41,985 nucleotides of DNA from Varibaculum cambriense (GTDB taxonomy: Bacteria; Actinomycetota; Actinomycetes; Actinomycetales; Actinomycetaceae): assembly GCF_022133705.1 (NCBI RefSeq), contig NZ_JAKNHJ010000021.1, positions 1-41,985 on the forward strand. The letters are read 5' to 3'. This document shows, in pieces, positions 11,653 through 41,985 of this stretch. The notes beneath the pieces were generated by a model, which had not been told where the DNA came from, ran no database searches, and worked only from the letters and a program-made list of their open reading frames with translations. Position 1 is the stretch's first letter; each line of letters opens with the position of its first letter. Position numbers and translations under genes: made by a program.

Positions 11653-14600
11653 CTAGACCTCCTGGGATCGGCGACGGCTGGCGGCGACCAGTCCCACTCC
11701 GGTGACTACCGCTAGCGAGTTCAACGCCAACAGGGAAGTCATAGATACCCCGGTCACTGCCATTTGCTCGCCGGCCGCCGGTTTCCCGGCAGCCGGTTTG
11801 ACGGTGCTAACCTCTTTAACTACGACAGTTTTGATGGTTTTCTTTCCCTTGGGTTTCGCCGGTAGTTTCTCCCCTACTTCGAATTGGAAGCTGGCGCGCT
11901 CACCCCATTCGTTGGTAGCGGTGATGGTGTGTACACCTTGCTCCCGTGGCGCCTGCACGGATACCATAAATTCGCCTTTTCCTACCGCGGGATGTACCCC
12001 CAGGTCAACCACGGTTGAATGCATAATGACGTGGTTCTGACTATTAGGACTAAAACCGGTGAAACGTACCTGGAACTTGGTTCCCGGCAAGAACTTGCTC
12101 TGCCCATTGGCTGATTTGGCTGCCTGCACCTGATGGTATTGTTCGTAGACTGCCTGGGCAGCTGCCAGCTGAGCTTGAGCTTCCCGATTAGCCGCGGTGG
12201 CTTCCTCCAAGATATCTTGCGCAGCTTGAGCCAGTCTCGCTAGTTCATCTGCTGCTTTCTGCGCCTCCTCGGCAGCGGTAGCCGCATCGCGATAAGCAGC
12301 AAAGGAAGCGGGCAATCCCAGGTTGTCTAGGTCGCTGTCCCCAGCGGGCAGGCCATCTTTCAAAGCCTGCTCACCATCAATAGCCGCCAGTTTATCCGCT
12401 AGTGCCTGCTTGGCTTCCGCTTGTTTTTGCAGGTCGTCCGCCACCTTAGTGACGGCTTGCAATTCTTTATTAGCTTTGGCGGCGATAGCTTCGGCCGCTT
12501 GCAGGTCTTGCTCCGCCTTTTGCGCCTTTCCAGCCGCCTGATCGTGAGCTATCTGCTGCTCGACAAGTGGATTTAGCGCCTGTTGCGCGTTTGCACGCTC
12601 GCTTTCAGCCCGGTTGGCAGTCTCTGCAGCTTGCTGATTTTCGGTTGTCGCCTCCTCTAGCGCAGTATCTGCAGCCTCTTTCGCTGCCTGTGCCTGTTGG
12701 AGTGCCTGGGTCGCCGTTTCCAGCTGGGTGGCGGCTGCTTGAGCTTTGGCTTTAGCCTGGGTTAAAGCTGCTTTCGTCTCGGACAACTCTTGCTGGGCAT
12801 TTCCTAACGCCGTGCCTTTAGCCAGCTCTTCTAGTTCTTTTTCCTTCTCTAGTTGCGCTGCCTCTTTGTCTTTAACGTCCTGCTTTGCCGTTTCCAGGGC
12901 TTTCTGCGCAGTAGCTAATTCTGCCTTAGCATTCTCGAGGGCGCTCTTAGCGTCAGTAGCGGCCTGAGTAGCTGTCTGCACCGCCTGCTCTTTTTCCTTA
13001 GCCACACCCTCGGCAGTCTGCTTATTGTTCTGCGCCGCCGCAACCTTTTCTTTTTCGCTTTCTAGAGCCGCAGCGGCGTCAGCTTCTTTGCTTTGGGCAT
13101 CCTTCCAGGCATTATCCTTTTCCTGAGTTTTAGCTTCCGCCTCTGCTACCGCTGCTTCAGCTGTAGTTATATTGTCACCGGCAGTCTTTGCCGCTGCTTG
13201 CAACTTTGCCAGTTTTGCTTTCGCATCCGCTAGCTTCTGCTTTGCGCCCTCGGTAGTCACCGAGTTGTAGTACTCCATAAACCGTTGTTCGTATTCATCA
13301 ACGGTATAGGTTTTTTCTCCCTGCCTGACTCCGCTATAGACTTCGCCCCAAACAGCTCCATATTCAATCCCCTCACCTGCTGCACCCGCAAAACCGGTGG
13401 CAGTAGAGTGACCTACGATATTGAGGTAATGCCCTATATCGAAATATATGCTGGGGTACTTCTGATAAATCTGATACGAGGACATATTCGCCATATCGGG
13501 GTGCTGTTTCAAAGCTTCTTCATAGATGGATTTCTCGGCGTACCACCTGGCCACCGGATCGCTTTTAGCCCACGCTAAGTTTTCTGCCACCCCAAAAGCA
13601 CCAGAGTGCTCAATCTGGTACCTCGACCAGTTAGCTCGCGCTTGAGCAATCGCCATTAAGCGGTCAGTAATCACGTAATCGTCAAGCTTTTCGCCATTGC
13701 GTCCACCTTTGGCGCGATATTGATTAACTACCCGTACCCAGGCGATGGCCTCTTTCATATTGTCTAAATTGGTAGTGTCGTCCGGGGCACCGGGTTTCAA
13801 AGTGCCGTTAACCAAGGTGCCATCGTCAGCGGTAGTGGTTTTATCATTCAAAATCTCAAGAGCATCCGCTGCCCCTACACTTTCAAAGAACCCAAAGCTG
13901 CCCTTCTTGAATTTTTCGGCAGCTTCTTTCACCGCTTTTTCCGCGTTCGCTACTTCGGCTTCGGCTGCTTTTACCGCTGCGTCGGCTTGCTGTTTCTTAG
14001 TCTTCGCTTCTTCGAGATCTTTTTCTGCTTTAGTTTGTGCAGCTTTAGCCTCATCCGCAGCCTTCTTGGCAGCCGCAGTTTCACCCTGGCGGGTCGCAAA
14101 AACCGCCTCAGCTTTACTTTGCTCTGCTTGCGCGGCTTTTACCTGTTTCCCGGCAGCCTGCACTGCCTGGTCTGCCGCAACTTTATCTTTCTGAGCTTGC
14201 TCAACTGCTGCCTGTTTCAATTGCAGCTCGTTTTGCGCAGCCGGGACTGCCTGTTGCGCTTTTTCTAGCTCTATTTGCCGTTGCTCAACATTGTTCTTAG
14301 CTGCCGTCACCTGTGCTTTAGCTGCCTCTACCGCTGCCTGCGCGTCCTTTAAGGCCTGCTCGGCGTCCTCACTCAGCTGTTTAACTTTGGCTTCTAGCTC
14401 GCTAACTTTTTGTTCCTTGGCGCGTACATCAGCTTCGGCATCTTGTTTTGCTTGGGTAGTCTGATTGACCGTTTCCGTGGCGGATTGCAAATTCGTAGCC
14501 GCAGTTTGCGCGCTTGCCTGTGCGTCTTGCAGCGCTTTTTGTGCTGCGGCCGCTTTGGCGTCTGCCTCTTGCTTGGCTTTTTCGGCGGCAGCTACCTTGT

Positions 14601-15141
14601 CTTTGGCTGCCTGCAGCTGTCCAGCATCGGGGGCAGGATTATCCGCGACTGCTTTATCTGCTTCCGCCTTTGCTTGCTCGGCTTTGGTTACGGCTTCACC
14701 CGCAGCTTTTGCGGCGCTCTCGGCAGCCGTTTTCTTCTCATTGGCTTTTTCAAGCAGGCTGGCTGCATCACTTGCCGCTTGCGCGCTCTCTTTCTGCGCT
14801 TTCGCTAGGGCATCGAGGGCGTCTTGCTTCGCCTTTTCGCTGGCCGCAGACTTTTCTCCGGATTGCTCGGCAGCTTCCTGCGCTTTCTTCGCAGCTACTT
14901 GCGCTTTAGTTTCCGCATCCGCGGCCTTATTTGCGCTCTCTTGGGCGCTATTCTTCGCGGCTTCCAGGTTTTTTTCCGATTGAATTTTCGGATTGGTTTG
15001 CTGGTTTTGCTGTTCAGTACCTGTGCGATCAGCGGGCCCGGTAGGCTCGGGAGCGGCTTGCGCGATCCCCGTGGCCGGCAGAGTTCCCGCCAACGCCAAA
15101 GCGAATCCGGTAGCAGTTAGTTTTGCGGCATGCTGCTTCAT
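11653..15141 (-). CDS. Wall-anchored coiled-coil surface protein with central CAP domain
   Basis: This 1162-residue protein begins with a signal peptide (hydrophobic core near 10-30, cleavage after AQA). Residues 33-410 and 630-985 are Ala/Lys/Glu/Gln-rich heptad-like coiled coils. Between them (about 415-630) lies a CAP/SCP-like domain with the signatures EHSGAFGVAENLAW and GHYLNIVGHSTATGF. A beta-sandwich-like domain follows (about 1010-1085), then a Lys/Pro-rich stretch. The C-terminus carries MAVTG, a hydrophobic helix and RRRS, an LAxTG-like sortase signal. The layout resembles SEC10/PgrA-type surface proteins. A role in adhesion or cell contact is inference. The ATG follows AAAGGAG by eleven bases; the terminator at 11588-11628 ends the gene. 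Confidence 0.88.
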   Translation of the reverse strand: MKQHAAKLTATGFALALAGTLPATGIAQAAPEPTGPADRTGTEQQNQQTNPKIQSEKNLEAAKNSAQESANKAADAETKAQVAAKKAQEAAEQSGEKSAASEKAKQDALDALAKAQKESAQAASDAASLLEKANEKKTAAESAAKAAGEAVTKAEQAKAEADKAVADNPAPDAGQLQAAKDKVAAAEKAKQEADAKAAAAQKALQDAQASAQTAATNLQSATETVNQTTQAKQDAEADVRAKEQKVSELEAKVKQLSEDAEQALKDAQAAVEAAKAQVTAAKNNVEQRQIELEKAQQAVPAAQNELQLKQAAVEQAQKDKVAADQAVQAAGKQVKAAQAEQSKAEAVFATRQGETAAAKKAADEAKAAQTKAEKDLEEAKTKKQQADAAVKAAEAEVANAEKAVKEAAEKFKKGSFGFFESVGAADALEILNDKTTTADDGTLVNGTLKPGAPDDTTNLDNMKEAIAWVRVVNQYRAKGGRNGEKLDDYVITDRLMAIAQARANWSRYQIEHSGAFGVAENLAWAKSDPVARWYAEKSIYEEALKQHPDMANMSSYQIYQKYPSIYFDIGHYLNIVGHSTATGFAGAAGEGIEYGAVWGEVYSGVRQGEKTYTVDEYEQRFMEYYNSVTTEGAKQKLADAKAKLAKLQAAAKTAGDNITTAEAAVAEAEAKTQEKDNAWKDAQSKEADAAAALESEKEKVAAAQNNKQTAEGVAKEKEQAVQTATQAATDAKSALENAKAELATAQKALETAKQDVKDKEAAQLEKEKELEELAKGTALGNAQQELSETKAALTQAKAKAQAAATQLETATQALQQAQAAKEAADTALEEATTENQQAAETANRAESERANAQQALNPLVEQQIAHDQAAGKAQKAEQDLQAAEAIAAKANKELQAVTKVADDLQKQAEAKQALADKLAAIDGEQALKDGLPAGDSDLDNLGLPASFAAYRDAATAAEEAQKAADELARLAQAAQDILEEATAANREAQAQLAAAQAVYEQYHQVQAAKSANGQSKFLPGTKFQVRFTGFSPNSQNHVIMHSTVVDLGVHPAVGKGEFMVSVQAPREQGVHTITATNEWGERASFQFEVGEKLPAKPKGKKTIKTVVVKEVSTVKPAAGKPAAGEQMAVTGVSMTSLLALNSLAVVTGVGLVAASRRRSQEV

Positions 15142-33715: not shown

Positions 33716-34810
33716 TCATGCCAAACCCTTCGGGCTGTTAGCACTTTCATAGCCTTTTGCCCAGGTGGGAGTGGGGGCAGTGACGGTTACGGTGTTAGCA
33801 GGATTTTCCGGATCGGGAAACTGTAGCTCTTGGGCGTGCAGGCACAGCTGGGGCTCAACATTTTCTGGGGTATCTGCAGGCAAAACTTCCGGATAGAGGG
33901 GGTCGCCCAACAGGGGATACCCGAAATGCGCCAAGGTGGCGCGCAGCTGATGAGTAAACCCGGTTTCTGGCTCTAACTGCCACAATAATTCTTCTTCTGG
34001 CACGTGTCCCTGGCTGTCCGGGTTTACGTTTCCCTCTCCCTCCGGCTTTTCTGCCTTTTCGGGGAGGGGGAATTTTCCGAGGACGAGGCCGCGGGTACGG
34101 CTTTGGCAGCGCGCCACCTTTTTCCCGCGCGGGGGCGCTCCTATCGATACTGTGAGCGAGCCGGTTTCCTTAAACATAGGGAGCTGGAAGTCAAAACACT
34201 CCCCCACCTGGGGAGTCACCCCTTCTCCCCTATCGCCACCGCCGCGGCTGCGCGCCAAGTAGGTTTTCTTTACTTGCCGGCGGTCAAATAGCTGCTGGTA
34301 ACGCGCCCGACATTTCGGATCTAGGGTCAGCAATAAACATCCGGTAGTGAGGCGATCTAGGCGATGAGCAGCGGTTATTTCGTCGTTTCTAAATTGGCGG
34401 CGAGCCGCTACCACCACCGAGCGGGTAACCCAGGAGCCGCGGGGAATAGTTGCCAGGCTAGCGGGTTTATTAACTACGATTGCCCCCTCGCCCTCCCAAA
34501 GCACCTGCAACTTTGGTAAAGCAGCGTCCTCATCGGGAGCTACTCGATGCAAGTAGTAGCGTTGCCCCTCAAAAAGCTCGCTGTCCGGGGATAAAGCGAT
34601 CCCTAAGGGAGACACCACATCCCCCGCCGCGAACGCGTTCACTACAAAATCCGCAATCTCACTGGTAGACAGTGATAGTTTGCGTTCCAGCTGGGCTTGC
34701 AACTGCCGCGATAAAGCTTTCTGACCAGTAGAAACAAACCCCACCGGATCAATTCCGCCCCGCGCAGGCGGACGTGTCCCCGCCCTCCGCTTCCTACGTC
34801 TTCCCACCAC
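33716..34810 (-). CDS. RluA-family RNA pseudouridine synthase
   Basis: Converts uridine to pseudouridine in rRNA or tRNA. A basic N-terminus (VGRRRKRRAGTRPP) and an S4-like region (about 35-95) precede the catalytic domain with AIVVNKPASLATIP and the active-site motif AAHRLDRLTTGCLLL (catalytic Asp near 153), and later ETGFTHQLRATLAHFGYPLLGDPLY. The insert around residues 190-260 is longer than usual, Gly/Lys/Glu-rich and low in complexity. The target is unknown. The start is one of two adjacent GTG codons with a weak upstream site; the frame ends 33 bases before the amidotransferase gene. Confidence 0.9.
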   Translation of the reverse strand: MVGRRRKRRAGTRPPARGGIDPVGFVSTGQKALSRQLQAQLERKLSLSTSEIADFVVNAFAAGDVVSPLGIALSPDSELFEGQRYYLHRVAPDEDAALPKLQVLWEGEGAIVVNKPASLATIPRGSWVTRSVVVAARRQFRNDEITAAHRLDRLTTGCLLLTLDPKCRARYQQLFDRRQVKKTYLARSRGGGDRGEGVTPQVGECFDFQLPMFKETGSLTVSIGAPPRGKKVARCQSRTRGLVLGKFPLPEKAEKPEGEGNVNPDSQGHVPEEELLWQLEPETGFTHQLRATLAHFGYPLLGDPLYPEVLPADTPENVEPQLCLHAQELQFPDPENPANTVTVTAPTPTWAKGYESANSPKGLA

Positions 34811-34903
34811 ACCCCGCCTATCTCCGAGATTTTTCCGTCAGCCCCCCTACTGTATATCGCACCTGTACGCATGTTCTTTTCTGTTATAGGTATGCATACT
34901 CAG

Positions 34904-35848
34904 TCAGCACAATCGGGCACCCTTGACTCCGACAACCCGCGCACCGCAGTCTAACGCCTGGGAAATGCACTGTTCGAAAGAATACTTTTTCGCTAAACCA
35001 GCTACTAATCCTGCGATAAAAGCATCGCCTGCTCCCGTAGGATCCACAACCGTAGCTGGAGTTACTTTCCACAGGCGCCACCCACCTCGGTAAGTCCATA
35101 CCCCCTTTTCTGCCCCGGTGACAATTAACGTAATATCTGAATCAGCAAAAAAAGATGAAACATCTAGTGGTTGGTTCGGCAGTCGCGCAGATAGCTGTTC
35201 CCAGTTCATACCGAATAAACGCTCAACCCCGAACTCGTTCATGATTATCACGTTGGCGGCTTGTTCTAGAGGATTACCCGGATTGAACTCTGCACCTGTA
35301 TCTATATCAAGTACCAGTTGCCCTCCAGAAGACTTCAGTTTTCGAATTACTCTGAGAAAATCATCCTTATTACTTATCCTTCGTAGCTTCTCAGGTGTTG
35401 AACACACAACTTTCGACCTCGAAATACTTTCAAGGCTTTCCTGATCCAGTAACAACTTTTCCGTTGAACGATCTGGATACACTGCGACGTTACTACCTTC
35501 AGTTAAAAATACGTAGCATAGCGGCTCAGGAGCATCAGGAACCATGTCGATAAGATTTGCGCTAACGCCGTGTGCGCTTAAATCAGCTACAAGTTGCTCG
35601 CTGATTTCTCCAGCTTTTAACCTGCCAACCATGCAAGTCTTCAGTCCCAGCCAGGAAGTGTCGACCGCCATGTTAGCTACGGTTCCCCCGGGAAGGTTTT
35701 CTTGATTCAACAAGCACGCTTTGTCTCCAAGTTTTGGCCAATGGTCAAGGGTTACATATACGTCAAGAACAGGCTCCCCAATGAAACAGATATCAACTTG
35801 GTTCTCTAAATCAGGTTCAGGCGCCCCCTTTAACTCGCTAAAAGACAT
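34904..35848 (-). CDS. PfkB-family carbohydrate/nucleoside kinase
   Basis: This 314-residue ribokinase-fold protein has the N-terminal motif NLPGGTVANMAVDTSWLG (about 51-68) and the C-terminal anion-hole motif TVVDPTGAGDAFIAGLVAG with catalytic Asp275. The family phosphorylates sugars, nucleosides or similar alcohols; the substrate here is not assignable. It is the last gene of the ECF operon, and its start overlaps the cupin gene by 11 bases. Together with the transporter it suggests trapping of an imported molecule as its phosphate. No clear terminator follows in the 93 bases before the pseudouridine synthase gene. Confidence 0.9.
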   Translation of the reverse strand: MSFSELKGAPEPDLENQVDICFIGEPVLDVYVTLDHWPKLGDKACLLNQENLPGGTVANMAVDTSWLGLKTCMVGRLKAGEISEQLVADLSAHGVSANLIDMVPDAPEPLCYVFLTEGSNVAVYPDRSTEKLLLDQESLESISRSKVVCSTPEKLRRISNKDDFLRVIRKLKSSGGQLVLDIDTGAEFNPGNPLEQAANVIIMNEFGVERLFGMNWEQLSARLPNQPLDVSSFFADSDITLIVTGAEKGVWTYRGGWRLWKVTPATVVDPTGAGDAFIAGLVAGLAKKYSFEQCISQALDCGARVVGVKGARLC

Positions 35849-36341
35849 TATGGTTACTTTCCGTCTCTGCGTGAGTCTCTAAGCCGCCTCCTGCTAACGG
35901 TACCCACTCCGATGGGAAGCGTGGATCAGAGGTAGCGATCCAGTAGTACTGGGTTGCTTTCCTTATCCCAAAACATGGAGAATGCCAGGTGCCCTTATCC
36001 ATAACTAGAGAAGTACCACAGGGAATTTCCAATAACACACATTCAGCAGCCACCGGGATCTCAAATTCCTTTGCGCATACACCCAGCACTATTGGGTGGT
36101 CCGTCGGACACAGAGTTTCCTGAGTGTGATCGTGCCGCTCCATTTTTTCAATCTGTTTAGGTAAGACATCAACCTGTGTCATAGCTAGATTTACTGCAGT
36201 ATCGGAAATTTTTTTCGCACTCTTGTAGTCATTCCAACCATCACCATTGGTTACTACGACAGACTCGCTTTCCTCCTTAAAGCTTAGTGCCGTACCCCAT
36301 GCAGAAATATCATCGCGTCCCACGACCAGTCTCTTAGTCAT
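35838..36341 (-). CDS. Cupin-like protein (ureidoglycolate lyase/DUF4867-like)
   Basis: This 167-residue protein has the look of a small cupin enzyme: KIEKMERHDHTQE-type segment (here QIEKMERHDHTQETLCPTD, about 62-80, metal-binding His and Glu candidates), ALLEIPCGTSLVMDKGTWHSP (second motif with WHSP near 118-121). The GTWH element recalls ureidoglycolate lyases and related sugar-processing cupins. I cannot name the reaction; lyase or isomerase activity is inference. The ATG overlaps the BtpA gene by 8 bases with GGAG upstream, and the end overlaps the kinase start. Confidence 0.65.
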   Translation of the reverse strand: MTKRLVVGRDDISAWGTALSFKEESESVVVTNGDGWNDYKSAKKISDTAVNLAMTQVDVLPKQIEKMERHDHTQETLCPTDHPIVLGVCAKEFEIPVAAECVLLEIPCGTSLVMDKGTWHSPCFGIRKATQYYWIATSDPRFPSEWVPLAGGGLETHAETESNHNVF

Positions 36342-37101
36342 TGATATTCTCCTTTCCCGTCAAAGACCTCACTAGTGACACCAATCGCCTTACCCTGTCT
36401 ATTTCTAAATCTCCTTTAGCTATTCCGCCATGCTTAAGAGAAGATCCAATAATCGCACCATCAGCTATTGACAGCTGTTGAGCGCAGTTATTCTCGTTGA
36501 CTCCAGCACCTACTATCAGAGGGAAATCTCCTATAAGTTCTCGAAACTGCTTTATCTTTTTTAGGTCAGTCTCCACGCCGGTATCTACCCCTGTAACGAT
36601 GATCCCATCACCGCGACTTTTAGCTAGTTGTAAATCAACTTCGAGAGAATTTCCGCTTAGCACCGGTTGGTTCTTCAATCGCACTCCACCTAAAATAACC
36701 GTGGATGTGTTCTCTTGACACCAGCGGATGCGCTTTTCAAAAGCTGGCTCGTCTTCTGGCGAAAGTTGTCCCGAAAGCGAGTCTAGTTGAATAAAAGGCA
36801 GCTGGTGCTCAACAGCTAAATCGAAACTTTTATCGTTATCCCAAATAACATCCACACCAACAAACAAATCTGGAAATTTGCCCTTTAATCGTGGAAGGCA
36901 ATATCGCACGTCTTCAAGAGAGCCAAAATAGTTTTCAACCACCACTCCATCGAAGCCGCCGGTAGAATATATTTCGCATTCCCTTATTGCTCGGGAGTAT
37001 ATGTCCTCAATTCCGTCACCTTTAAGATGGATCATACCCAGCAGTAGTTTCTCGCCGTTTCCCGGCCAACCTTTAAGTAGATTATTACTGTCTTTCATCA
37101 T
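36334..37101 (-). CDS. BtpA/SgcQ-family TIM-barrel protein
   Basis: This 255-residue protein matches the BtpA family (PF03437) throughout: LLLGMIHLKGDG, STGGFDGVVVENYFG, VGVDVIWDNDKS, LPFIQLDSLSG, GGVRLKNQPVLS, DGIIVTGVDTGVETDLKKI, LIVGAGVNENNC and DGAIIGSSLKHGG. The family has a phosphate-binding TIM-barrel appearance; BtpA was named for photosystem I biogenesis, but SgcQ homologues sit in sugar operons and no reaction is established that I know of. Here it follows the second EcfA gene by 34 bases and overlaps the cupin gene, pointing to a role in catabolism of the imported substrate. Confidence 0.9.
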   Translation of the reverse strand: MMKDSNNLLKGWPGNGEKLLLGMIHLKGDGIEDIYSRAIRECEIYSTGGFDGVVVENYFGSLEDVRYCLPRLKGKFPDLFVGVDVIWDNDKSFDLAVEHQLPFIQLDSLSGQLSPEDEPAFEKRIRWCQENTSTVILGGVRLKNQPVLSGNSLEVDLQLAKSRGDGIIVTGVDTGVETDLKKIKQFRELIGDFPLIVGAGVNENNCAQQLSIADGAIIGSSLKHGGIAKGDLEIDRVRRLVSLVRSLTGKENIND

Positions 37102-37135
37102 TTTATAAACACTTTCTCCAAAACATAACTATTCA

Positions 37136-37939
37136 TTACTTTAAAAATTCTTTATACCAATGTTTAATCTGGTTCATTTTCAATAAGCCTTTGGGTGCGC
37201 CTGCAGATCGAGCAAGCGCTACCGCCGGAGGAACATTTAACTTAGCTTCCGCCAATACTTGGTCATCTAAGAAGGCCTCTGAAACCGAGCTATCACAGAT
37301 AATCGTTCCTTGACTCATCACTACTATTCGGGAAAAATTCTCAATTACAAAACGCATATCATGGGAAACTGCAATAACGCTTTTCCCTGAGTCTGAAGCC
37401 CATTCCATAATTGCTGTCAGATCTTCCCGGCCAACCTCATCCAACCCTGCAGTAGGTTCGTCTAGGATCACATAGTTGGGATTCATAGCTAGAACAGCAG
37501 CGATTGCAACAAACTTACGTTGTGCAAGCGGCAAGTCCAACGGATTAGTCTCAGTTTGATTCAACAATCCGCAGACTGATAGAGCTTCCTCTACTCTTCT
37601 ATTTCTCTCTGTCTCACTAAGTCCGATACGTTTCAGCGCATATTCACATTCTTCTTTAACAGTTTTTGAAAATATCTGATCATCAGGATTCTGAAACACG
37701 TATCCCACTTGCCGCGCTATTTCATCGGTTCGAAACTCCGCTGTATCTTTACCTTCTAAGAGAATAGATCCCGCCGTAGGCCTTAGCAGTCCATTAAGTA
37801 ACTTTGATAAAGTGCTTTTCCCAGCTCCGTTTTGCCCTATCAGTGCTACGCGTTCTTGTTGCCCCAACGTTAACGACACCCCTCTAAGAGCAGTCGTTCC
37901 ACCTGGATACTCAAATTCGACTTCATCGCAAGTTATCAT
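37136..37939 (-). CDS. ECF transporter ATPase A2
   Basis: This 267-residue ATPase of an energy-coupling-factor importer has a canonical Walker A (ALIGQNGAGKSTLSKLL, about 33-49), a Q-loop in YVFQNPDDQIF, Walker B YVILDEPTAGLDE and an H-loop VSHDM. Its signature is degenerate: LPLAQRKFVAIA stands where LSGGQ..RVAIA is expected. The C-terminal 55 residues follow EcfA patterns. The gene overlaps ecfA1 by 17 bases. Paired with A1, it should give one complete and one incomplete ATP site. Confidence 0.9.
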   Translation of the reverse strand: MITCDEVEFEYPGGTTALRGVSLTLGQQERVALIGQNGAGKSTLSKLLNGLLRPTAGSILLEGKDTAEFRTDEIARQVGYVFQNPDDQIFSKTVKEECEYALKRIGLSETERNRRVEEALSVCGLLNQTETNPLDLPLAQRKFVAIAAVLAMNPNYVILDEPTAGLDEVGREDLTAIMEWASDSGKSVIAVSHDMRFVIENFSRIVVMSQGTIICDSSVSEAFLDDQVLAEAKLNVPPAVALARSAGAPKGLLKMNQIKHWYKEFLK

Positions 37940-38777
37940 TTTTTCCCTTTAAAATTGTATTAACAGTGGTTTTAGCCTCAGCAAACGTTATCCATCGAGG
38001 ATCCAAATTTAACCAGTTTGACAGGGTAAAAAGCTCAGGAAATCCGCAGCGAATTTCATCATTTTGAGCTTGTGTAAGGATATCTCTAGCATTACCCACC
38101 GCATAGACTTTCCCGTTATCGAGTACCACTAGTTCATCTGCGATTTCCACCAATTGATCAATTTTATTTTCGCTTACTAAAACAGTTTTCCCTTCCTGCT
38201 TCATTTTTGTAATAGCTGCGAAAATCATTTCCGTAGTCGCGGGATCAAGTTGTGAAGTTGGTTCATCAATCACAATAATTGGCGTATCCATCGCCATAAC
38301 TGACGCTACTGACACCCTCTGTCGCTGCCCACCAGACAACTCCAATGGATCGCGAAATGCTAAATCTTTCAGATCCATTTCGTCAATTACACGTGCGGTT
38401 CTGCTGATTATACGATCCCGTTGCCAACCTAAATTCTCAAGCCCAAAAGCAATTTCTTCAACTACAGTTTGACAGGTTCCAGTTAGTTGCGTGTAAGGAT
38501 TTTCGAATACCAAGGCAACATTTTCAACAAGTTCTCGTTGTGAGAACTCCGCAATATTCTTTCCAAATATCTCTATCGTCCCTTTAAGCTCGCCTCCGAG
38601 AACCCCTGGAATCAGACCTTTGAGAGTGTTACATAGAGTCGTTTTCCCTGACCCATTAGCTCCAATCAACCCATAGACTTTCCCAGACTCTAAACTGAGA
38701 TTTACGTTTTCCAGGGCCCAGCTCTTTGCCAGAGGATGTTTAACCCCTAAATTTAAAGTCTTTATTGCTGCTACCAA
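37923..38777 (-). CDS. ECF transporter ATPase A1
   Basis: EcfA-type ATPase, 284 residues from the TTG at 38777. That start is chosen because GGAGGG lies eight bases before it; the frame runs 24 codons further upstream, but those lie inside ecfT. The TTG overlaps the ecfT stop in TTGGTAG. Motifs: Walker A GLIGANGSGKTT (about 36-47), VFENPYTQLTG with Glu in place of the usual Gln, a canonical LSGGQRQRV (about 147-155), and Walker B IIVIDEPTSQLDP. The H-loop reads VLVSENKIDQL, with Asn where the switch His belongs. Confidence 0.9.
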   Translation of the reverse strand: MVAAIKTLNLGVKHPLAKSWALENVNLSLESGKVYGLIGANGSGKTTLCNTLKGLIPGVLGGELKGTIEIFGKNIAEFSQRELVENVALVFENPYTQLTGTCQTVVEEIAFGLENLGWQRDRIISRTARVIDEMDLKDLAFRDPLELSGGQRQRVSVASVMAMDTPIIVIDEPTSQLDPATTEMIFAAITKMKQEGKTVLVSENKIDQLVEIADELVVLDNGKVYAVGNARDILTQAQNDEIRCGFPELFTLSNWLNLDPRWITFAEAKTTVNTILKGKNDNLR

Positions 38778-39580
38778 AGAAATCGCCCTCCGATTCCTAT
38801 AAATATTGAAAGAAAAGCCGCGACGAAAATAACACCATAACCCAGCCATGAGAGAGTTTGCTGAGGGATTAACCGCGTACCTTTTATTTCGGTGATACTG
38901 GCTCCTCTAACTTCCATCGCGACAGCTCTTTCTTCAACACTAGAAAGCGACGACAAGACCAGAGGGGCAACAGTCGGGAGAACTGCTTTCAGTTTAACGA
39001 TACGATTTCCCTCTACTTGAATCCCTCGGGAACGTTGAGCATCACGAACTGCTTTACCTCTATCAGCCAGTTCAGGAATCAACCTTGCTGAATTCATAAC
39101 TACGTAACATACCTGCCGCCTCGCACCCAACTGTTCTAAAGCGTTAGACAGGTCTTGTAGAGACAGAGTTGAAGTCAGCAGAACCAGAGGAGCACATACA
39201 GCTAGCAGCATTGCTATATACCAGTTAGCTGATATCAACCCTTCCGTAGTAACCGACAGAGGCCCGACAGTGAAAACTATGTGACTTCCATATTCGAAAA
39301 AAGCTCTTACCCCCAGAGTAAATATCGATACCGTTAATCCAATTTTCCAGAAACGCGACCAGAAGACCTTAAACACTTGGAGAACAACCGCTACAAGTAA
39401 GTTAACGATTGTGAAGGCATAGAAGATCGTGGCATTTCCACAAGCAAGAACTCCAAGCATCAGGATCAGTGGGACAGTAAATCTCACTAAGGGATTGATT
39501 CTCTGATAACGTCGATCTTGTCTCGGGTGAAACACAAACCTATTAATATCTTTTTCGATTTCTTCAGATTGTCCCATCAC
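38771..39580 (-). CDS. ECF transporter transmembrane component EcfT
   Basis: This 269-residue membrane protein has five or six hydrophobic segments. Between them lie the two coupling-helix motifs of EcfT: RDAQRSRGI (about 181-189) and VAMEVRGAS (about 222-230), each with the Ala-x-Arg-Gly-type core that docks on the ATPases. The N-terminus (FHPRQDRRYQRINPLVRF) is typical. Spacing to the S component is 6 bases, and the stop overlaps the ecfA1 start. It carries no sign of a vitamin-specific variant. Confidence 0.92.
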   Translation of the reverse strand: MMGQSEEIEKDINRFVFHPRQDRRYQRINPLVRFTVPLILMLGVLACGNATIFYAFTIVNLLVAVVLQVFKVFWSRFWKIGLTVSIFTLGVRAFFEYGSHIVFTVGPLSVTTEGLISANWYIAMLLAVCAPLVLLTSTLSLQDLSNALEQLGARRQVCYVVMNSARLIPELADRGKAVRDAQRSRGIQVEGNRIVKLKAVLPTVAPLVLSSLSSVEERAVAMEVRGASITEIKGTRLIPQQTLSWLGYGVIFVAAFLSIFIGIGGRFLW

Positions 39581-39586
39581 TAAAAC

Positions 39587-40204
39587 CTATTTCAAATCGC
39601 CTTTTAATTGCTTTTTTTCGCGGGTAAGAAGATAGGCTTCCCCCCGAGGGAATTTTGCAAGAGTACGCTGCGGCAGAGCAATCAAAATATAAAAAACGAT
39701 CAAAGCAGTTAATATTTTATCGGTAATATCACCAGACACTCCTGCCGCCATAGCAGCAGACCAGTTCGGAGCTCCTAGCTGCCGTAGCACCCCGGCGATA
39801 ATCCCAGTTCCAGTAGAGGAAAGACCACCATAAACCATAATTGTAATTAAGGATCCAGTGATTCCGGTCGCTAAACCATTAATGATTCCTGACAGCAACG
39901 ACCGCAGGAAAGAAGAGTAGCCATTTTTACGGGTCAATAGCGCTGCCACACCTGCCGTTACAATAAACAACGGAATATAGAAAATATTAGATGGATTAGT
40001 TATCAAGGAGGCAGCTCCTGTTAGTAGCCCCACAACAGTTGCCGGCCAAAAACCAGCGATTACCGCAGTAAGTACCACTCCAATTGAGTCCAACCAAATA
40101 GGAAGCTTCAGGGCAAACACAATCTGCGAAACCACAATATTTAATGCGATTGCAACCGGTATTAAATAGACCGTCATTTTATTCATACTTTTTGTGGACA
40201 TCAT
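39587..40204 (-). CDS. ECF transporter substrate-binding (S) component, unknown ligand
   Basis: This 205-residue protein has six hydrophobic segments (for example IPVAIALNIVVSQIVF, GVVLTAVIAGFWPATVVG, IPLFIVTAGVAALLT) with short loops, the size and pattern of ECF S components. Gly-rich GIINGLATGITGSLI and GLSSTGTGIIAG in the middle may form the ligand pocket. I could not match it to BioY, ThiT, RibU or another named vitamin group by eye. The ATG overlaps the GntR stop (ATGA) and AAAAAGGAG precedes it. It sits directly before ecfT, which suggests a dedicated rather than a shared module. Confidence 0.8.
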   Translation of the reverse strand: MMSTKSMNKMTVYLIPVAIALNIVVSQIVFALKLPIWLDSIGVVLTAVIAGFWPATVVGLLTGAASLITNPSNIFYIPLFIVTAGVAALLTRKNGYSSFLRSLLSGIINGLATGITGSLITIMVYGGLSSTGTGIIAGVLRQLGAPNWSAAMAAGVSGDITDKILTALIVFYILIALPQRTLAKFPRGEAYLLTREKKQLKGDLK

Positions 40205-40938
40205 TTAACTCCTTTTTCTAATGGTTTGGTGTATCCGTTAATATGGTCAATTTGCATACTGGCCTGCACACGAGATGAATAAGTTATCTCACTTTCTTCA
40301 ATGCAGGCGTAGTGTTCGTCATAAGTAGTTCCACTTGCATGTAATAAGCAACGGGTACTTGGCAATTCTTTTAGGATTCTTTTTGTTTCTCTATCTACTG
40401 TTCTTGATTTAAGAGAAACAACGGACCTGGTGGGATTTCTATTATATTTTTCGCGCAGAATTTCATAAATAGATTCGTCATTAAAATTATAAGTATCAAT
40501 GGCTGGAAATAAATCGAGAGGAAGAAATGAAATATCCAAACTGATAGGTATCACGCCGCTAGGAGTCTCCATCGCTCGTAATCTCTTCAACCGCAACATT
40601 CGCCGATTCTCACGCACTATGACAGCCTGCTCTAGCACCTTAGCGAGCGCGCGTTCATCAGTACCTTTTAAACGATCAGTCAAAGATCCAAAATTCCATA
40701 AGAGAGTTTTGCTCTCTGGCGAGGACACAAAAGTTCCTTTACCTTTTTTGGATTCAAGGATACCTTCTGCAATTAGCCCTTTTATAGACCTTCGTACGGT
40801 TCCCCGCGCAACATTATAGATTTCACAAAGATCATTTTCTGAAGGTAGTTTCTCACCTACAAGATAGTCTCCATCATGAATCTGTCTACGTATTATCTCA
40901 GCAATCTGCTCATAAACTGGTGGTGAACTATTAAGCAT
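40201..40938 (-). CDS. GntR-family regulator with UTRA domain
   Basis: This 245-residue regulator has the winged helix of GntR proteins at the N-terminus (VYEQIAEIIRRQIHDGDYLVGEKLPSENDLCEIYNVARGTVRRSIKGLIAEGILESKKGKGTFV in outline, about 5-70), then a UTRA ligand-binding domain (about 90-235) of the HutC/TreR type. It is the first gene of the operon and overlaps the S-component gene by four bases. The two inverted repeats flanking its promoter are likely its operators, so autoregulation with the imported or phosphorylated substrate as inducer is probable (inference). Confidence 0.93.
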   Translation of the reverse strand: MLNSSPPVYEQIAEIIRRQIHDGDYLVGEKLPSENDLCEIYNVARGTVRRSIKGLIAEGILESKKGKGTFVSSPESKTLLWNFGSLTDRLKGTDERALAKVLEQAVIVRENRRMLRLKRLRAMETPSGVIPISLDISFLPLDLFPAIDTYNFNDESIYEILREKYNRNPTRSVVSLKSRTVDRETKRILKELPSTRCLLHASGTTYDEHYACIEESEITYSSRVQASMQIDHINGYTKPLEKGVK

Positions 40939-40946
40939 TTTTGCCC

Positions 40947-40970
40947 CTTTACAAAAACCGTGTTGTAAAG
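40947..40970 (-). promoter_or_regulatory. Candidate GntR operator between promoter and start
   Basis: CTTTACAA and TTGTAAAG are perfect eight-base arms around an eight-base spacer, just downstream of the -10 box and before gntR; occupancy would block transcription. It shares TGTA-type half-sites with the repeat at 41007-41029. Confidence 0.5.
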
Positions 40971-40999
40971 AAAATACTTCCAGCCAATATACAAGTCAA
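40971..40999 (-). promoter_or_regulatory. Promoter of the gntR-ECF operon
   Basis: On the minus strand TTGACT (40999-40994), a 17-base spacer, and TATTTT (40976-40971) form a near-consensus sigma70-type promoter 33 bases before the gntR ATG. Confidence 0.7.
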
Positions 41000-41006
41000 C
41001 ACTTTT

Positions 41007-41029
41007 GCTGTACAGCCTTTATGTACAGC
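41007..41029 (-). promoter_or_regulatory. Candidate GntR operator upstream of -35
   Basis: GCTGTACA and TGTACAGC face each other across seven bases, directly upstream of the -35 box. The arms are perfect complements. Confidence 0.5.
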
Positions 41030-41053
41030 ATTTGAGTTCACTTCCTACCTGTA

Positions 41054-41067
41054 TATATGTACATATA
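41054..41067. promoter_or_regulatory. Palindrome TATATGTACATATA
   Basis: A perfect 14-base palindrome with a GTAC centre, 25 bases beyond the previous repeat. It may be a further regulator site. The rest of 41068-41240 holds no gene that I can see. Confidence 0.3.
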
Positions 41068-41242
41068 ATTGAGTTTCAGCTTTTGTATACCACTCACTTG
41101 CCCTTAGACAGTCGCAACCGCAGATAATTCTTATTAAGATGCGCAATTTAGATTTAGAGACAATAATAGATGGCAAAAATTAGCAGCTCACCCTGAATTA
41201 CAAGTCGAGATAAATCCAACCATGACATTGCACAGTTCCGTT

Positions 41243-41268
41243 ACATGTGCGGACATTGATCCTGAACC
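41243..41268 (-). repeat. Possible insertion-sequence end
   Basis: On the minus strand GGTTCAGGA-TCAA-TGTCCGC matches the two direct repeats at 41904-41973 (TTTCAGGA-N4-TGTCCG) but faces the opposite way. No transposase gene is present in the window. Confidence 0.3.
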
Positions 41269-41278
41269 ATTAGATTAC

Positions 41279-41346
41279 GCGGTATGTAAAACTGCTCCGC
41301 AGTTTTACATACCGCTGCGTCAAAAATGCCCACAAGCGCAAGCGCT
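41279..41346 (+). repeat. 68-bp hairpin repeat, copy 1
   Basis: GCGGTATGTAAAACTGC pairs perfectly with GCAGTTTTACATACCGC across TCC, followed by a 31-base tail ending in CAAGCGCAAGCGCT. The tail is identical in copy 2 at 41799-41866, and the copies are in the same orientation 520 bases apart. Confidence 0.85.
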
Positions 41347-41349
41347 CGG

Positions 41350-41380
41350 CGTAGCTTCCACGCTATAGCGCCCAGCTACG
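41350..41380 (-). other. Hairpin after the antitoxin gene
   Basis: CGTAGCT (41350-41356) pairs with AGCTACG (41374-41380), enclosing the palindrome CGCTATAGCG. It lies 20 bases after the antitoxin stop; there is no T run, so a terminator role is doubtful. Confidence 0.4.
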
Positions 41381-41400
41381 AGTAAAACCTAATATGGAGA

Positions 41401-41664
41401 TCAACTCAGTGCTTGGTTAGTAAGCTTTTCTGCCAGGTAAGTGTTTATTACTGCATTCCTAGAAATAGCCAGGTCGGCTGCCTGCTTATCCAGTCGCTGA
41501 ATCATCCACTCCGGCATTGTGAGAGTTACCCGCTTCTGCTCGATTGAACGCAGCGGGGTATTTACCTGTGGGTTTTCTAGATCAAAACATTCGAGGACGT
41601 CCTCACCGTCGTCAAACTTTTTATCAATCGCCTCGGCGGTTAAGGTATCAAATGTTTTGCTCAT
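41401..41664 (-). CDS. BrnA-type (CopG/RHH) antitoxin, orphan
   Basis: This 87-residue protein has the N-terminal TAEAIDKKFDDGEDVLECFD stretch and the C-terminal ribbon-helix-helix KRVTLTMPEWMIQRLDKQAADLAISRNAVINTYLAEKL, the pattern of CopG-type antitoxins that pair with BrnT ribonucleases and repress their own operon. The toxin gene should precede it; only the C-terminal tail of BrnT overlaps its start (41648-41716). The antitoxin itself looks intact. It lies between two 68-bp direct repeats, a hint of a small mobile or rearranged block. Confidence 0.85.
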   Translation of the reverse strand: MSKTFDTLTAEAIDKKFDDGEDVLECFDLENPQVNTPLRSIEQKRVTLTMPEWMIQRLDKQAADLAISRNAVINTYLAEKLTNQALS

Positions 41665-41716
41665 AAATCTCTACTTCCTTCTGCCTGGCGCGACGTACCG
41701 AAATTATCCGCGTGCG
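41648..41716 (-). pseudogene. BrnT toxin remnant (C-terminal tail)
   Basis: In a second frame overlapping the antitoxin start the minus strand encodes RTRIISVRRARQKEVEIYEQ and two more residues before TGA (41650-41648). This matches the C-terminal helix of BrnT toxins (usual form RIISARKATKRERRIYE). Upstream the frame stays open but no longer resembles BrnT, and the catalytic core is gone. The four-gene-end overlap with the antitoxin is that of an intact brnTA pair, so the toxin was deleted from its 5' side. Confidence 0.7.
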
Positions 41717-41757
41717 CCAATCCTCCTTGCATCCGAGACACCCCAAAATCCTAAAAA

Positions 41758-41789
41758 TCCCGCGACATATGCGGACATATGTCGCGGGA
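41758..41789. repeat. 14-bp-arm palindrome
   Basis: TCCCGCGACATATG and CATATGTCGCGGGA are perfect complements around CGGA. A degenerate version of the centre (CATGTGCGGACATTG) lies at the same distance before hairpin repeat copy 1, so the repeated unit probably includes it. Confidence 0.6.
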
Positions 41790-41798
41790 CATCACATT

Positions 41799-41866
41799 GC
41801 GGTATGTAAAACCGCTACGCGGCTTTACATACCGCTGCGTCAAAAATGCCCACAAGCGCAAGCGCT
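41799..41866 (+). repeat. 68-bp hairpin repeat, copy 2
   Basis: Same length and orientation as copy 1. GCGGTATGTAAAACCGC pairs with GCGGCTTTACATACCGC at 16 of 17 positions; one stem pair has changed from T-A to C-G on both sides relative to copy 1. The 31-base tail is identical. Confidence 0.85.
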
Positions 41867-41903
41867 TGGGGAATTTTTTCCTTGCGGTAGCGGTGGTGTG
41901 TGG

Positions 41904-41973
41904 TTTCAGGAGATGTGTCCGTTTTTCTTGGGGGTTGGGGTTTTAAGATCTTTCAGGACTTGTGTCCGCTTGT
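41904..41973 (+). repeat. Tandem direct repeats, possible insertion-sequence end
   Basis: TTTCAGGAGATGTGTCCG (41904) and TTTCAGGACTTGTGTCCG (41951) are direct repeats 47 bases apart. Multiple short repeats at a terminus recall IS21-like elements; the body would lie beyond the window. Nothing coding is visible from 41717 to the end. Confidence 0.35.
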
Positions 41974-41985
41974 AATAGGGAAAAA

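What the first reader, a model, noticed from the sequence alone, without database searches (positions are those of the whole stretch)
34904..41029. Dedicated ECF importer operon with BtpA, cupin and PfkB kinase: a candidate undescribed catabolic system
Seen: eight same-strand genes, most with overlapping ends, in the order gntR, S component, ecfT, ecfA1, ecfA2, btpA/sgcQ-like, cupin-like, pfkB kinase, from one near-consensus promoter. Known: ECF importers mostly bring in vitamins or metals and are rarely tied to catabolic kinases; BtpA/SgcQ proteins have no settled reaction. Inference: the S component imports a sugar, nucleoside or related molecule, the kinase phosphorylates it, and the cupin and BtpA proteins convert or cleave it. 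The block is visibly more AT-rich than its left neighbours, suggesting acquisition.
Basis: partly seen in the sequence, partly recalled or inferred. Interest (0 to 1): 0.82.

Follow-up and report, generated by a model that had tools for sequence, protein, structure and literature searches.

The report
Portable uptake-and-breakdown operon, importer swapped
Eight neighbouring bacterial genes form one unit that probably imports and breaks down an unidentified, perhaps nucleoside-like compound, and its regulator and three enzymes recur in distant bacteria with a completely different importer, which points to a pathway that our literature searches did not find described.

Summary
Eight minus-strand genes (34904-40938) run gntR, ECF S, T, A1, A2, btpA, AllA-like cupin, pfkB. 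The same eight genes in the same order occur in Mobiluncus curtisii and two Actinomyces. Only 1 of 6 genomes of the genus has a btpA match; the block is 43.8% GC against 54.0% for window 1-34800.

New here: the core gntR-btpA-cupin-pfkB is conserved across phyla with a different importer. In 14 proteobacterial plasmid records an amino-acid-type ABC binding protein, a close btpA, the cupin and the kinase lie in that order within 3.9 kb (14 of 14; five loci read in full).

The S component belongs to the CD3073-like group, whose relatives lie near nucleoside hydrolases in 9 of 17 loci examined. BtpA models as a phosphate-binding-type TIM barrel.

Best reading: a GntR-controlled pathway that imports a nucleoside-like riboside, phosphorylates it (PfkB) and cleaves or isomerises it (BtpA, cupin). 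The substrate is unproven. Rivals: Amadori/glycosylamine compounds, a simple sugar, queuosine salvage. I found no description in an open-access library.

The parts
41006..41030 (-). Palindromic operator candidate TGCTGTACA-N7-TGTACAGCA just upstream of the promoter; inferred GntR site
   Evidence: Inverted repeat; pattern TGTACA-N5-GCTGTACA exact in Mobiluncus L012; one place only in the 2.23 Mb own genome with up to 1 mismatch; not exact in Actinomyces L013.
40971..40999 (-). Promoter candidate TTGACT-17-TATTTT
   Evidence: 9 of 12 matches, not above chance as a scan hit, but TTGAC(T/C)TGTATAT is conserved in three genera.
40201..40938 (-). gntR, GntR/HutC-type regulator with UTRA domain
   Evidence: PF00392 72.6 bits, PF07702 52.4 bits; 33-36% identity over 217-229 residues to the GntR of the proteobacterial module, 3 of 3 compared.
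39587..40204 (-). ECF S component, CD3073-like group
   Evidence: NF045596 E=1.9e-26, below its cut-off; 91% identical in Mobiluncus and 80% in both Actinomyces.
38771..39580 (-). EcfT transmembrane coupling protein
   Evidence: PF02361 75.1 bits; two xRG coupling motifs QRSRG and MEVRG (role of motif recalled).
37923..38849 (-). EcfA1 ATPase; real start probably TTG at 38777
   Evidence: PF00005 89.9 bits; LSGGQ signature kept, H-loop His replaced by Asn; start by alignment and codon check.
37136..37939 (-). EcfA2 ATPase with degenerate signature (DLPLAQRKF in place of LSGGQ)
   Evidence: PF00005 104.6 bits; aligned with EcfA2 4mki, whose signature is canonical; degenerate in relatives too.
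36334..37101 (-). BtpA/SgcQ family protein, inferred phosphate-binding TIM-barrel enzyme
   Evidence: PF03437 103 bits against 30; AF2 model mean pLDDT 81.3, best matches include GGGPS, KDPGal aldolase, hexulose-6-P synthase, TrpA, PRAI.
35838..36341 (-). AllA-like (ureidoglycolate-lyase superfamily) cupin, specific subfamily
   Evidence: PF04115 28.7 bits against 23; ERH, TxE and WH residues invariant in 8 rows.
34904..35848 (-). PfkB-family kinase, nearest to ribokinase models but below their cut-off
   Evidence: PF00294 100.2 bits; TIGR02152 74.5 against 299.65; DPTGAGDAF here, DVTGAGDTF in the proteobacterial rows.

Best explanation
This is a self-contained, GntR-controlled operon for uptake and breakdown of a nucleoside-like riboside. 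(1) GntR represses its own operon at the TGTACA-N5-GCTGTACA palindrome until an intermediate relieves it [inferred; site conservation in one other genus shown]. (2) The S component with its own T-A1-A2 motor brings the compound in [ECF identity shown by sequence; ligand class inferred]. (3) PfkB phosphorylates the sugar part [family shown, acceptor inferred]. (4) BtpA, a predicted phosphate-binding TIM barrel, cleaves or isomerises the phosphorylated compound [fold predicted, reaction inferred]. (5) The AllA-like cupin finishes the nitrogen-bearing or open-chain fragment, so that a pentose phosphate and a base or amide are left [inferred, the weakest step]. The regulator and three enzymes are the functional core; the importer is interchangeable, being ECF here and an amino-acid-type ABC system in Proteobacteria [gene arrangement shown]. 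My split of confidence: a catabolic module acting through a phosphorylated intermediate, about 0.7; a nucleoside-like substrate, about 0.5.
For: Same eight genes and order in 3 other named genomes (these are the same three genomes as G053, G195 and G187). Cross-phylum core: the cupin (limit E 1e-2), kinase (1e-40) and binding protein (1e-60) searches each hit 14 plasmid records, and these are the 14 records with the closest btpA (43.1-44.2%) out of 104 with any btpA relative. By coordinates all 14 keep the order binding protein, btpA, cupin, kinase within 3.65-3.9 kb; the 5 loci read in full have a GntR between binding protein and btpA. BtpA clade of 9 rows 100/100 in a 25-row tree; GntR match over nearly full length, 3 of 3 compared. 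Nucleoside link of the S group: IU-nucleoside hydrolase in 9 of 17 relative loci examined, each within 4.3 kb of S; TudS-related desulfidase in 2, PCC-domain protein in 2, none of these in 4 (identities). Rough base rate: 7 hydrolase matches in 9 genomes of about 2 Mb, i.e. under 0.01 expected per 20 kb; those are not the genomes of the 17 loci, so this is no matched control. One relative (L067) has S, T, an A2 without LSGGQ, a PRAI-like barrel, PfkB and nucleoside hydrolase in one run. Phosphorylated substrate for BtpA: the predicted barrel matches phosphate-binding enzymes; a BtpA of the same clade sits with a mannose-type PTS, which phosphorylates what it imports (L070).
Against: No cassette contains a nucleoside hydrolase, so the S ligand is inferred from relatives only 25-35% identical. 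8 of 17 S-relative loci had no hydrolase in the stretch held; 4 of these, from two high-GC genera, have S and T with no such neighbour. The proteobacterial importer is of the amino-acid type. A same-clade BtpA with a PTS (L070) fits a sugar better than a nucleoside. Of 14 BtpA stretches of the phylum that I displayed, 7 showed no PTS or kinase neighbour that I could identify. The three other cupin matches in 396 phylum genomes lie in genomes without a listed BtpA match. The kinase is not pseudouridine kinase (14.2 against 540 bits). A shared barrel fold does not give a reaction. The cupin model failed (pLDDT 35.9).
Confidence: 0.48

Rival explanations
1. The substrate is a glycosylamine or Amadori-type sugar-amine conjugate. 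The kinase phosphorylates the sugar, BtpA rearranges or cleaves the sugar-nitrogen unit and the cupin splits the hemiaminal-like product, much as in fructoselysine use.
For: Amino-acid-type ABC importer in the proteobacterial module, with the deoxyfructosyl-amino-acid binding protein among its more distant PDB relatives (1.8e-10). The binding protein keeps the Arg but has Gly for the Asp of the alpha-amino site in the 2 sequences read, where the 5 PDB relatives aligned have Asp (roles recalled), which would suit an N-substituted amino acid. A distant BtpA (L083) lies beside a SIS-domain protein and a PfkB kinase. A same-clade BtpA lies with a mannose-type PTS. AllA acts on a hemiaminal-type substrate (recalled).
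Against: No SIS domain in the cassette; fructoselysine-6-kinase model 53.2 against 247 bits; the S group sits with nucleoside hydrolases, and I saw no deglycase beside it.
Confidence: 0.2
2. A plain pentose or rare sugar is imported, phosphorylated and isomerised; nitrogen plays no part.
For: Highest-scoring NCBIfam kinase models are ribokinase and IolC, both below cut-off; BtpA relatives with PTS, FGGY kinase or ribose-type ABC systems; a distant AllA-like cupin (24%) lies between a GPI cupin and what reads by eye as a ribose-type ABC transporter (L110).
Against: CD3073-like S relatives sit with nucleoside hydrolases and desulfidases; neither importer belongs to a usual sugar class.
Confidence: 0.14
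3. The operon salvages queuosine or another modified base for tRNA, as QueK-QrtT-QueL does.
For: tRNA-guanine transglycosylase is in 4 of 4 cassette genomes; the published Q salvage unit also pairs an ECF S component with a nucleoside hydrolase, most Actinomycetota are predicted there to salvage queuine, and C. difficile has two QrtT proteins, of which I saw the locus of only one, so CD3073 as the other is not excluded (PMC11477304, PMC11130926, passages read).
Against: TGT matched all 14 control genomes too, so it says little. No hydrolase in the cassette and no riboswitch at gathering score; the QueK-QrtT-QueL unit named is CD1682-84; kinase, BtpA and cupin have no place in that pathway as described; one passage says oral Actinomyces do not use Q.
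Confidence: 0.08
4. A micronutrient importer with unrelated enzymes caught in one transcript.
For: ECF importers mostly serve micronutrients (established knowledge).
Against: Order kept in 3 genera at 44-91% protein identity and the enzymes kept with another importer.
Confidence: 0.03

Closest known systems
CD3073-family ECF S components (NCBIfam NF045596) with dedicated T-A-A
   Same: The only NCBIfam model hit by this S and by each of 9 relatives scanned; second ATPase without LSGGQ in all relatives printed.
   Different: Score 92.8 against the 180-bit cut-off; no nucleoside hydrolase or TudS in the operon; instead btpA, cupin and pfkB.
PsuK-PsuG pseudouridine degradation
   Same: Logic of kinase first, then splitting of a phosphorylated nucleoside (PMC9247573, start of abstract in a search listing).
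   Different: No PsuG (PF04227) match in the genome (0 of 1); kinase 14.2 against 540 bits on the PsuK model.
QueK-QrtT-QueL queuosine salvage
   Same: ECF S component linked with nucleoside processing (passages).
   Different: No hydrolase domain or riboswitch match here; kinase, BtpA and cupin instead.
BtpA/SgcQ operons with PTS or ribose-type ABC importers (E. coli sgc recalled)
   Same: BtpA beside systems that yield phosphorylated sugars in 7 of 14 phylum stretches displayed and in Rhizobium and Paracoccus plasmids.
   Different: Mostly other BtpA clades (L070 is the exception); no cupin of this subfamily seen in those loci.
Ureidoglycolate lyase AllA
   Same: PF04115 over cut-off, ERH and WH residues conserved within the subfamily (likeness to AllA motifs recalled).
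   Different: Far below every AllA equivalog cut-off (23.4 against 212 at best); no allantoin gene among the eight.

Membership tests
ECF transporter with dedicated module (group I) | S, T and two ABC ATPases encoded together | tested here: met
   same order in 3 other genomes.
ECF transporter with dedicated module (group I) | EcfT with two xRG coupling motifs | tested here: met
   QRSRG and MEVRG; motif recalled.
ECF transporter with dedicated module (group I) | Canonical LSGGQ signature in both ATPases | tested here: not met
   A1 LSGGQ, A2 DLPLAQRKF. It should work like an ECF importer; the motor is a variant.
ECF transporter with dedicated module (group I) | No other ECF module in the genome shares the S component | tested here: inconclusive
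   at E<=1e-25 returned A2 and one 32% ATPase beside a permease that reads by eye as a methionine-type ABC system, but not the cassette's own A1, so it cannot exclude another module.
CD3073 S-component equivalog (NF045596) | Score at or above 180 bits | tested here: not met
   92.8 bits.
BtpA/SgcQ family (PF03437) | Score over Pfam gathering cut-off | tested here: met
   103 against 30 bits; NCBIfam TIGR00259 97.9 against 153.4 not reached.
Photosystem I biogenesis BtpA (NF045918) | Score over equivalog cut-off | tested here: not met
   70 against 400 bits.
Ureidoglycolate lyase superfamily (PF04115) | Score over Pfam gathering cut-off | tested here: met
   28.7 against 23 bits.
Ureidoglycolate lyase AllA proper | NCBIfam AllA equivalog cut-off | tested here: not met
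   Best 23.4 against 212 bits.
PfkB kinases (PF00294) | Score over cut-off and GAGD motif | tested here: met
   100.2 against 25.8 bits; DPTGAGDAF.
Ribokinase (TIGR02152) | Equivalog cut-off | tested here: not met
   74.5 against 299.65 bits.
Pseudouridine degradation PsuK-PsuG | PsuG in the genome | tested here: not met
   0 of 1 genome.
Queuosine salvage QueK-QrtT-QueL | Hydrolase and lyase beside the S component | tested here: not met
   No IU-nucleoside hydrolase domain among the 8 proteins, and no radical SAM domain (QueL type recalled).
Queuosine salvage QueK-QrtT-QueL | S component of QrtT/QueT type | tested here: inconclusive
   Best NCBIfam match is CD3073; no QrtT sequence was compared.
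Fructoselysine use (FrlB/FrlD) | SIS-domain deglycase beside the kinase | tested here: not met
   No SIS domain among the 8 proteins.
Nucleoside importers | Binding and transport of a nucleoside | not testable with these tools
   Needs a binding or uptake assay.
Phosphate-binding TIM barrels (TrpA, KDPGal aldolase, GGGPS and kin) | Fold and phosphate site | tested here: inconclusive

The most novel reading that the evidence does not exclude
BtpA of this clade is a new kind of phospho-nucleoside (riboside-5-phosphate) lyase which, like the alpha subunit of tryptophan synthase, splits a base from a phosphorylated sugar inside a TIM barrel. With PfkB and an AllA-like cupin it forms a third route, beside nucleoside hydrolases/phosphorylases and PsuK-PsuG, for breaking down a recalcitrant or modified nucleoside such as pseudouridine or another tRNA-derived one. 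It travels between phyla as a four-gene core that plugs into whichever importer is at hand, here an ECF importer run by a motor with one degenerate ATP site.
Probability: 0.2. Interest if true: 0.85.

Novelty: new variant of a known kind. Interest (0 to 1): 0.62.

Why it matters
BtpA/SgcQ proteins occur in bacteria and archaea (control genomes) and, as far as my searches show, have no settled reaction. Here one sits in a compact unit with a kinase and a cupin, conserved in two distant groups with the same regulator type but unrelated importers. If the unit is complete, the substrate must be handled by three purifiable proteins and recognised by two independent binding proteins, which makes the reaction directly testable. 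It would also add a catabolic, nucleoside-type cargo to ECF importers, which are known chiefly for micronutrients, and a heterodimeric ECF motor with one degenerate site.

Tried and rejected
Vitamin importer: disfavoured, as no vitamin S model was hit, there is no Rfam match in 34000-41985, and the enzymes are conserved with another importer. PsuK-PsuG: no PsuG match, kinase model far below cut-off. TGT search: positive in 4 of 4, but in 14 of 14 controls too, so uninformative.

Neighbouring NCS2/uracil-permease-like gene (Mobiluncus, two ORFs away) and cytosine deaminase and permease genes (both Actinomyces, convergent) hinted at pyrimidines. They are not in the operon and differ between genera, so they are not counted as evidence.

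'Only ECF module in the genome': tried; not supported, because the cassette's own A1 did not appear at that limit.

Cupin structure prediction failed (pLDDT 35.9) and was not used. A PDB sequence search of the cupin gave six designed TIM barrels and a LIM protein, taken as noise; the A7 kinase profile had no hit at the strict limit 1e-30. Viral-contig scans with S, BtpA and cupin alignments found nothing. PHROGs: 0 families for 3 proteins. Two weak hits (G142, G143) lie in trp operons and read as tryptophan synthase alpha; they and the two 25% G095 places, not checked further, were dropped. Of the three other phylum cupin matches, L110 is mentioned under rival 2; G351 lies among oxidase-like genes and G260 could not be read clearly, so neither was used. 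BtpA stretches L073 and L075 were fetched but not displayed.


Full report
What is there. The eight ORFs are real and in the order given: gntR 40201-40938, S 39587-40204, T 38771-39580, A1 37923-38849, A2 37136-37939, btpA 36334-37101, cupin 35838-36341, pfkB 34904-35848, all on the minus strand. Five of seven junctions overlap. A1 probably starts at a TTG at 38777, which leaves a 7-base overlap with T. The block is 43.8% GC, against 54.0% for window positions 1-34800. In Mobiluncus and the two Actinomyces the same block is also 5.9-6.7 points below its flanks (46.7 v 53.4; 51.7 v 57.6; 51.6 v 57.9), so part of the AT-richness goes with the cassette.

Is it more than chance? Yes. One scan of named genome contigs with the BtpA protein found 4 loci: Mobiluncus curtisii, Actinomyces sp. 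S6-Spd3 and Actinomyces marseillensis at 71-79% identity, and a cyanobacterium at 23%. The first three carry all eight genes in the same order; in A. marseillensis ecfA2-btpA-cupin is there twice. In whole genomes, 1 of 6 of the genus has a match. In 200 genomes of the family 7 matched; 4 of these are close (the window's own genome and the three just named), 1 has two 25% relatives that I did not check further, and 2 read as tryptophan synthase alpha. The S component is the most conserved part (91% and 80%). The patchy spread, with flanking genes that differ between the window, Mobiluncus and Actinomyces (the two Actinomyces share theirs), fits horizontal transfer within Actinomycetaceae (inference).

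Regulation. The palindrome TGCTGTACA-N7-TGTACAGCA lies just upstream of the promoter. Its core is exact in Mobiluncus, not exact in Actinomyces, and found at one place in the 2.23 Mb genome with up to one mismatch. As a mere consensus hit the promoter is no better than chance, but TTGAC(T/C)TGTATAT is kept in three genera. With only one such site in the genome, the regulon is probably this operon alone (inference). No Rfam family matched 34000-41985 at gathering score.

A core that outlives its importer. tblastn of the plasmid collection gave 104 records with a BtpA relative; 25 were listed, the best 14 at 43.1-44.2% identity and the other 11 at 25.9-27.9%. The cupin hit 14 records at a loose limit of 1e-2, the Ensifer kinase 14 at 1e-40 and the Ensifer binding protein 14 at 1e-60; the last two limits were strict and set by me, and looser ones were not tried. 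By accession these are the same 14 records: Ensifer 9, Shinella 2, Sinorhizobium 1, Roseateles sp. XES5 1, Antarctobacter 1. From the coordinates, all 14 have binding protein, btpA, cupin and kinase in that order within 3.65-3.9 kb. I read 5 of the 14 in full. All five run ABC permease, ATPase, binding protein, gntR, btpA, 'ureidoglycolate lyase', 'carbohydrate kinase'. The GntR proteins match the window's over 217-229 residues (33-36%, 3 of 3 compared), whereas three other GntRs match over 86-162. In a 25-row BtpA tree the window clade, the proteobacterial clade and one PTS-linked sequence (L070) form a group with 100/100 support. So gntR-btpA-cupin-pfkB is a unit and the importer is exchangeable.

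What the importer says. The S component and each of the 9 relatives I scanned match one NCBIfam model, CD3073. I examined 17 relative loci: all 6 distant family hits, all 4 others, and 7 of the 28 plasmid records, chosen for variety. An IU-nucleoside hydrolase lies in 9 of 17 (L027, L031, L066, L067, L069, L099, L101, L102, L105), within 4.3 kb of S; a TudS-related desulfidase in 2 (L068, L103), a PCC-domain protein in 2 (L100, L104) and none of these in 4 (L026, L028-L030). Hydrolase genes are rare, with 7 matches in 9 genomes of about 2 Mb, but those are not the genomes of the 17 loci. Of the four cassette genomes two (G053, G187) have no IU-hydrolase match at all, so such a hydrolase is not required. 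L067 is a telling parallel: S, T, A2, a PRAI-like TIM barrel, PfkB and hydrolase in a row. Against this, the proteobacterial importer is of the polar amino acid class. Its binding protein keeps the Arg that in this class binds the carboxylate, but has Gly where the five PDB relatives aligned have the Asp of the amino site (2 of 2 sequences read; roles recalled). A ligand without a free alpha-amino group is suggested, not shown. Whether the S component could be of the queuosine-precursor QrtT type was not settled: no QrtT sequence was at hand to compare.

A second finding in the motor. EcfA2 has DLPLAQRKF where the three ECF-type ATPases aligned from the PDB have an intact LSGGQ. All 8 EcfA2 sequences aligned (4 of them from cassettes), and the second ATPase or domain in 8 further relatives printed, lack LSGGQ. 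The partner keeps (L/I)SGG(Q/E) in the 11 sequences printed, and in the 3 cassette A1 sequences aligned has lost the H-loop His. This predicts one degenerate and one working ATP site (inference). In a folate ECF motor seen with Mg-ATP in both subunits, both are engaged with the signature motif (PMC10368641, passages read). I found no report of a degenerate ECF motor in one search.

Verdict. The substrate and the three reactions remain unproven. Searches for prior description (listings only, in an open-access library) turned up none; papers in closed journals may exist. Passages were read in PMC11130926, PMC11477304 and PMC10368641; other papers were seen in listings only.

Noticed in passing
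37136-37939 and relatives L012-L014, L027, L029, L031, L066-L069, L099-L101, L104, L105: In every relative printed the second ATPase of this CD3073-like ECF group lacks LSGGQ, an asymmetry for which one literature search showed no report in ECF importers.
   Followed up: partly
41401-41664 (-): BrnA-family antitoxin (82.3 against 60 bits); no ORF of 80 aa or more lies upstream of it on its strand before the contig end, so its toxin gene is missing, shorter, or beyond the contig.
   Followed up: partly
41279-41349 and 41799-41869: Two 71-base direct repeats (93% identical), each with a strong inverted repeat, flank the brnA gene beside the cassette; perhaps a dispersed repeat or mobile element trace.
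   Followed up: no
L014 9177-13462: In Actinomyces marseillensis ecfA2-btpA-cupin is present twice in tandem within the cassette; real duplication or assembly effect not resolved.
   Followed up: no
L104 6550-9602 and L100 6519-9737: A Salmonella record and Paracoccus yeei carry a complete CD3073-like S-T-A-A importer next to a PCC-domain protein, with no nucleoside hydrolase in the stretch held.
   Followed up: no
L096 6021-10356, L097 5180-9430: Another BtpA setting in Rhizobium and Paracoccus: ribose-type ABC, phosphotriesterase, glutamine amidotransferase, BtpA, TenA-family protein, with a ribokinase/PfkB gene; no substrate is named in the annotation.
   Followed up: no
11653-15141 (-): 1162-aa secreted, Ala/Lys/Glu-rich coiled-coil-like surface protein with a C-terminal hydrophobic tail; probably explains the strong AT skew at 12-15 kb (read by eye).
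   Followed up: no
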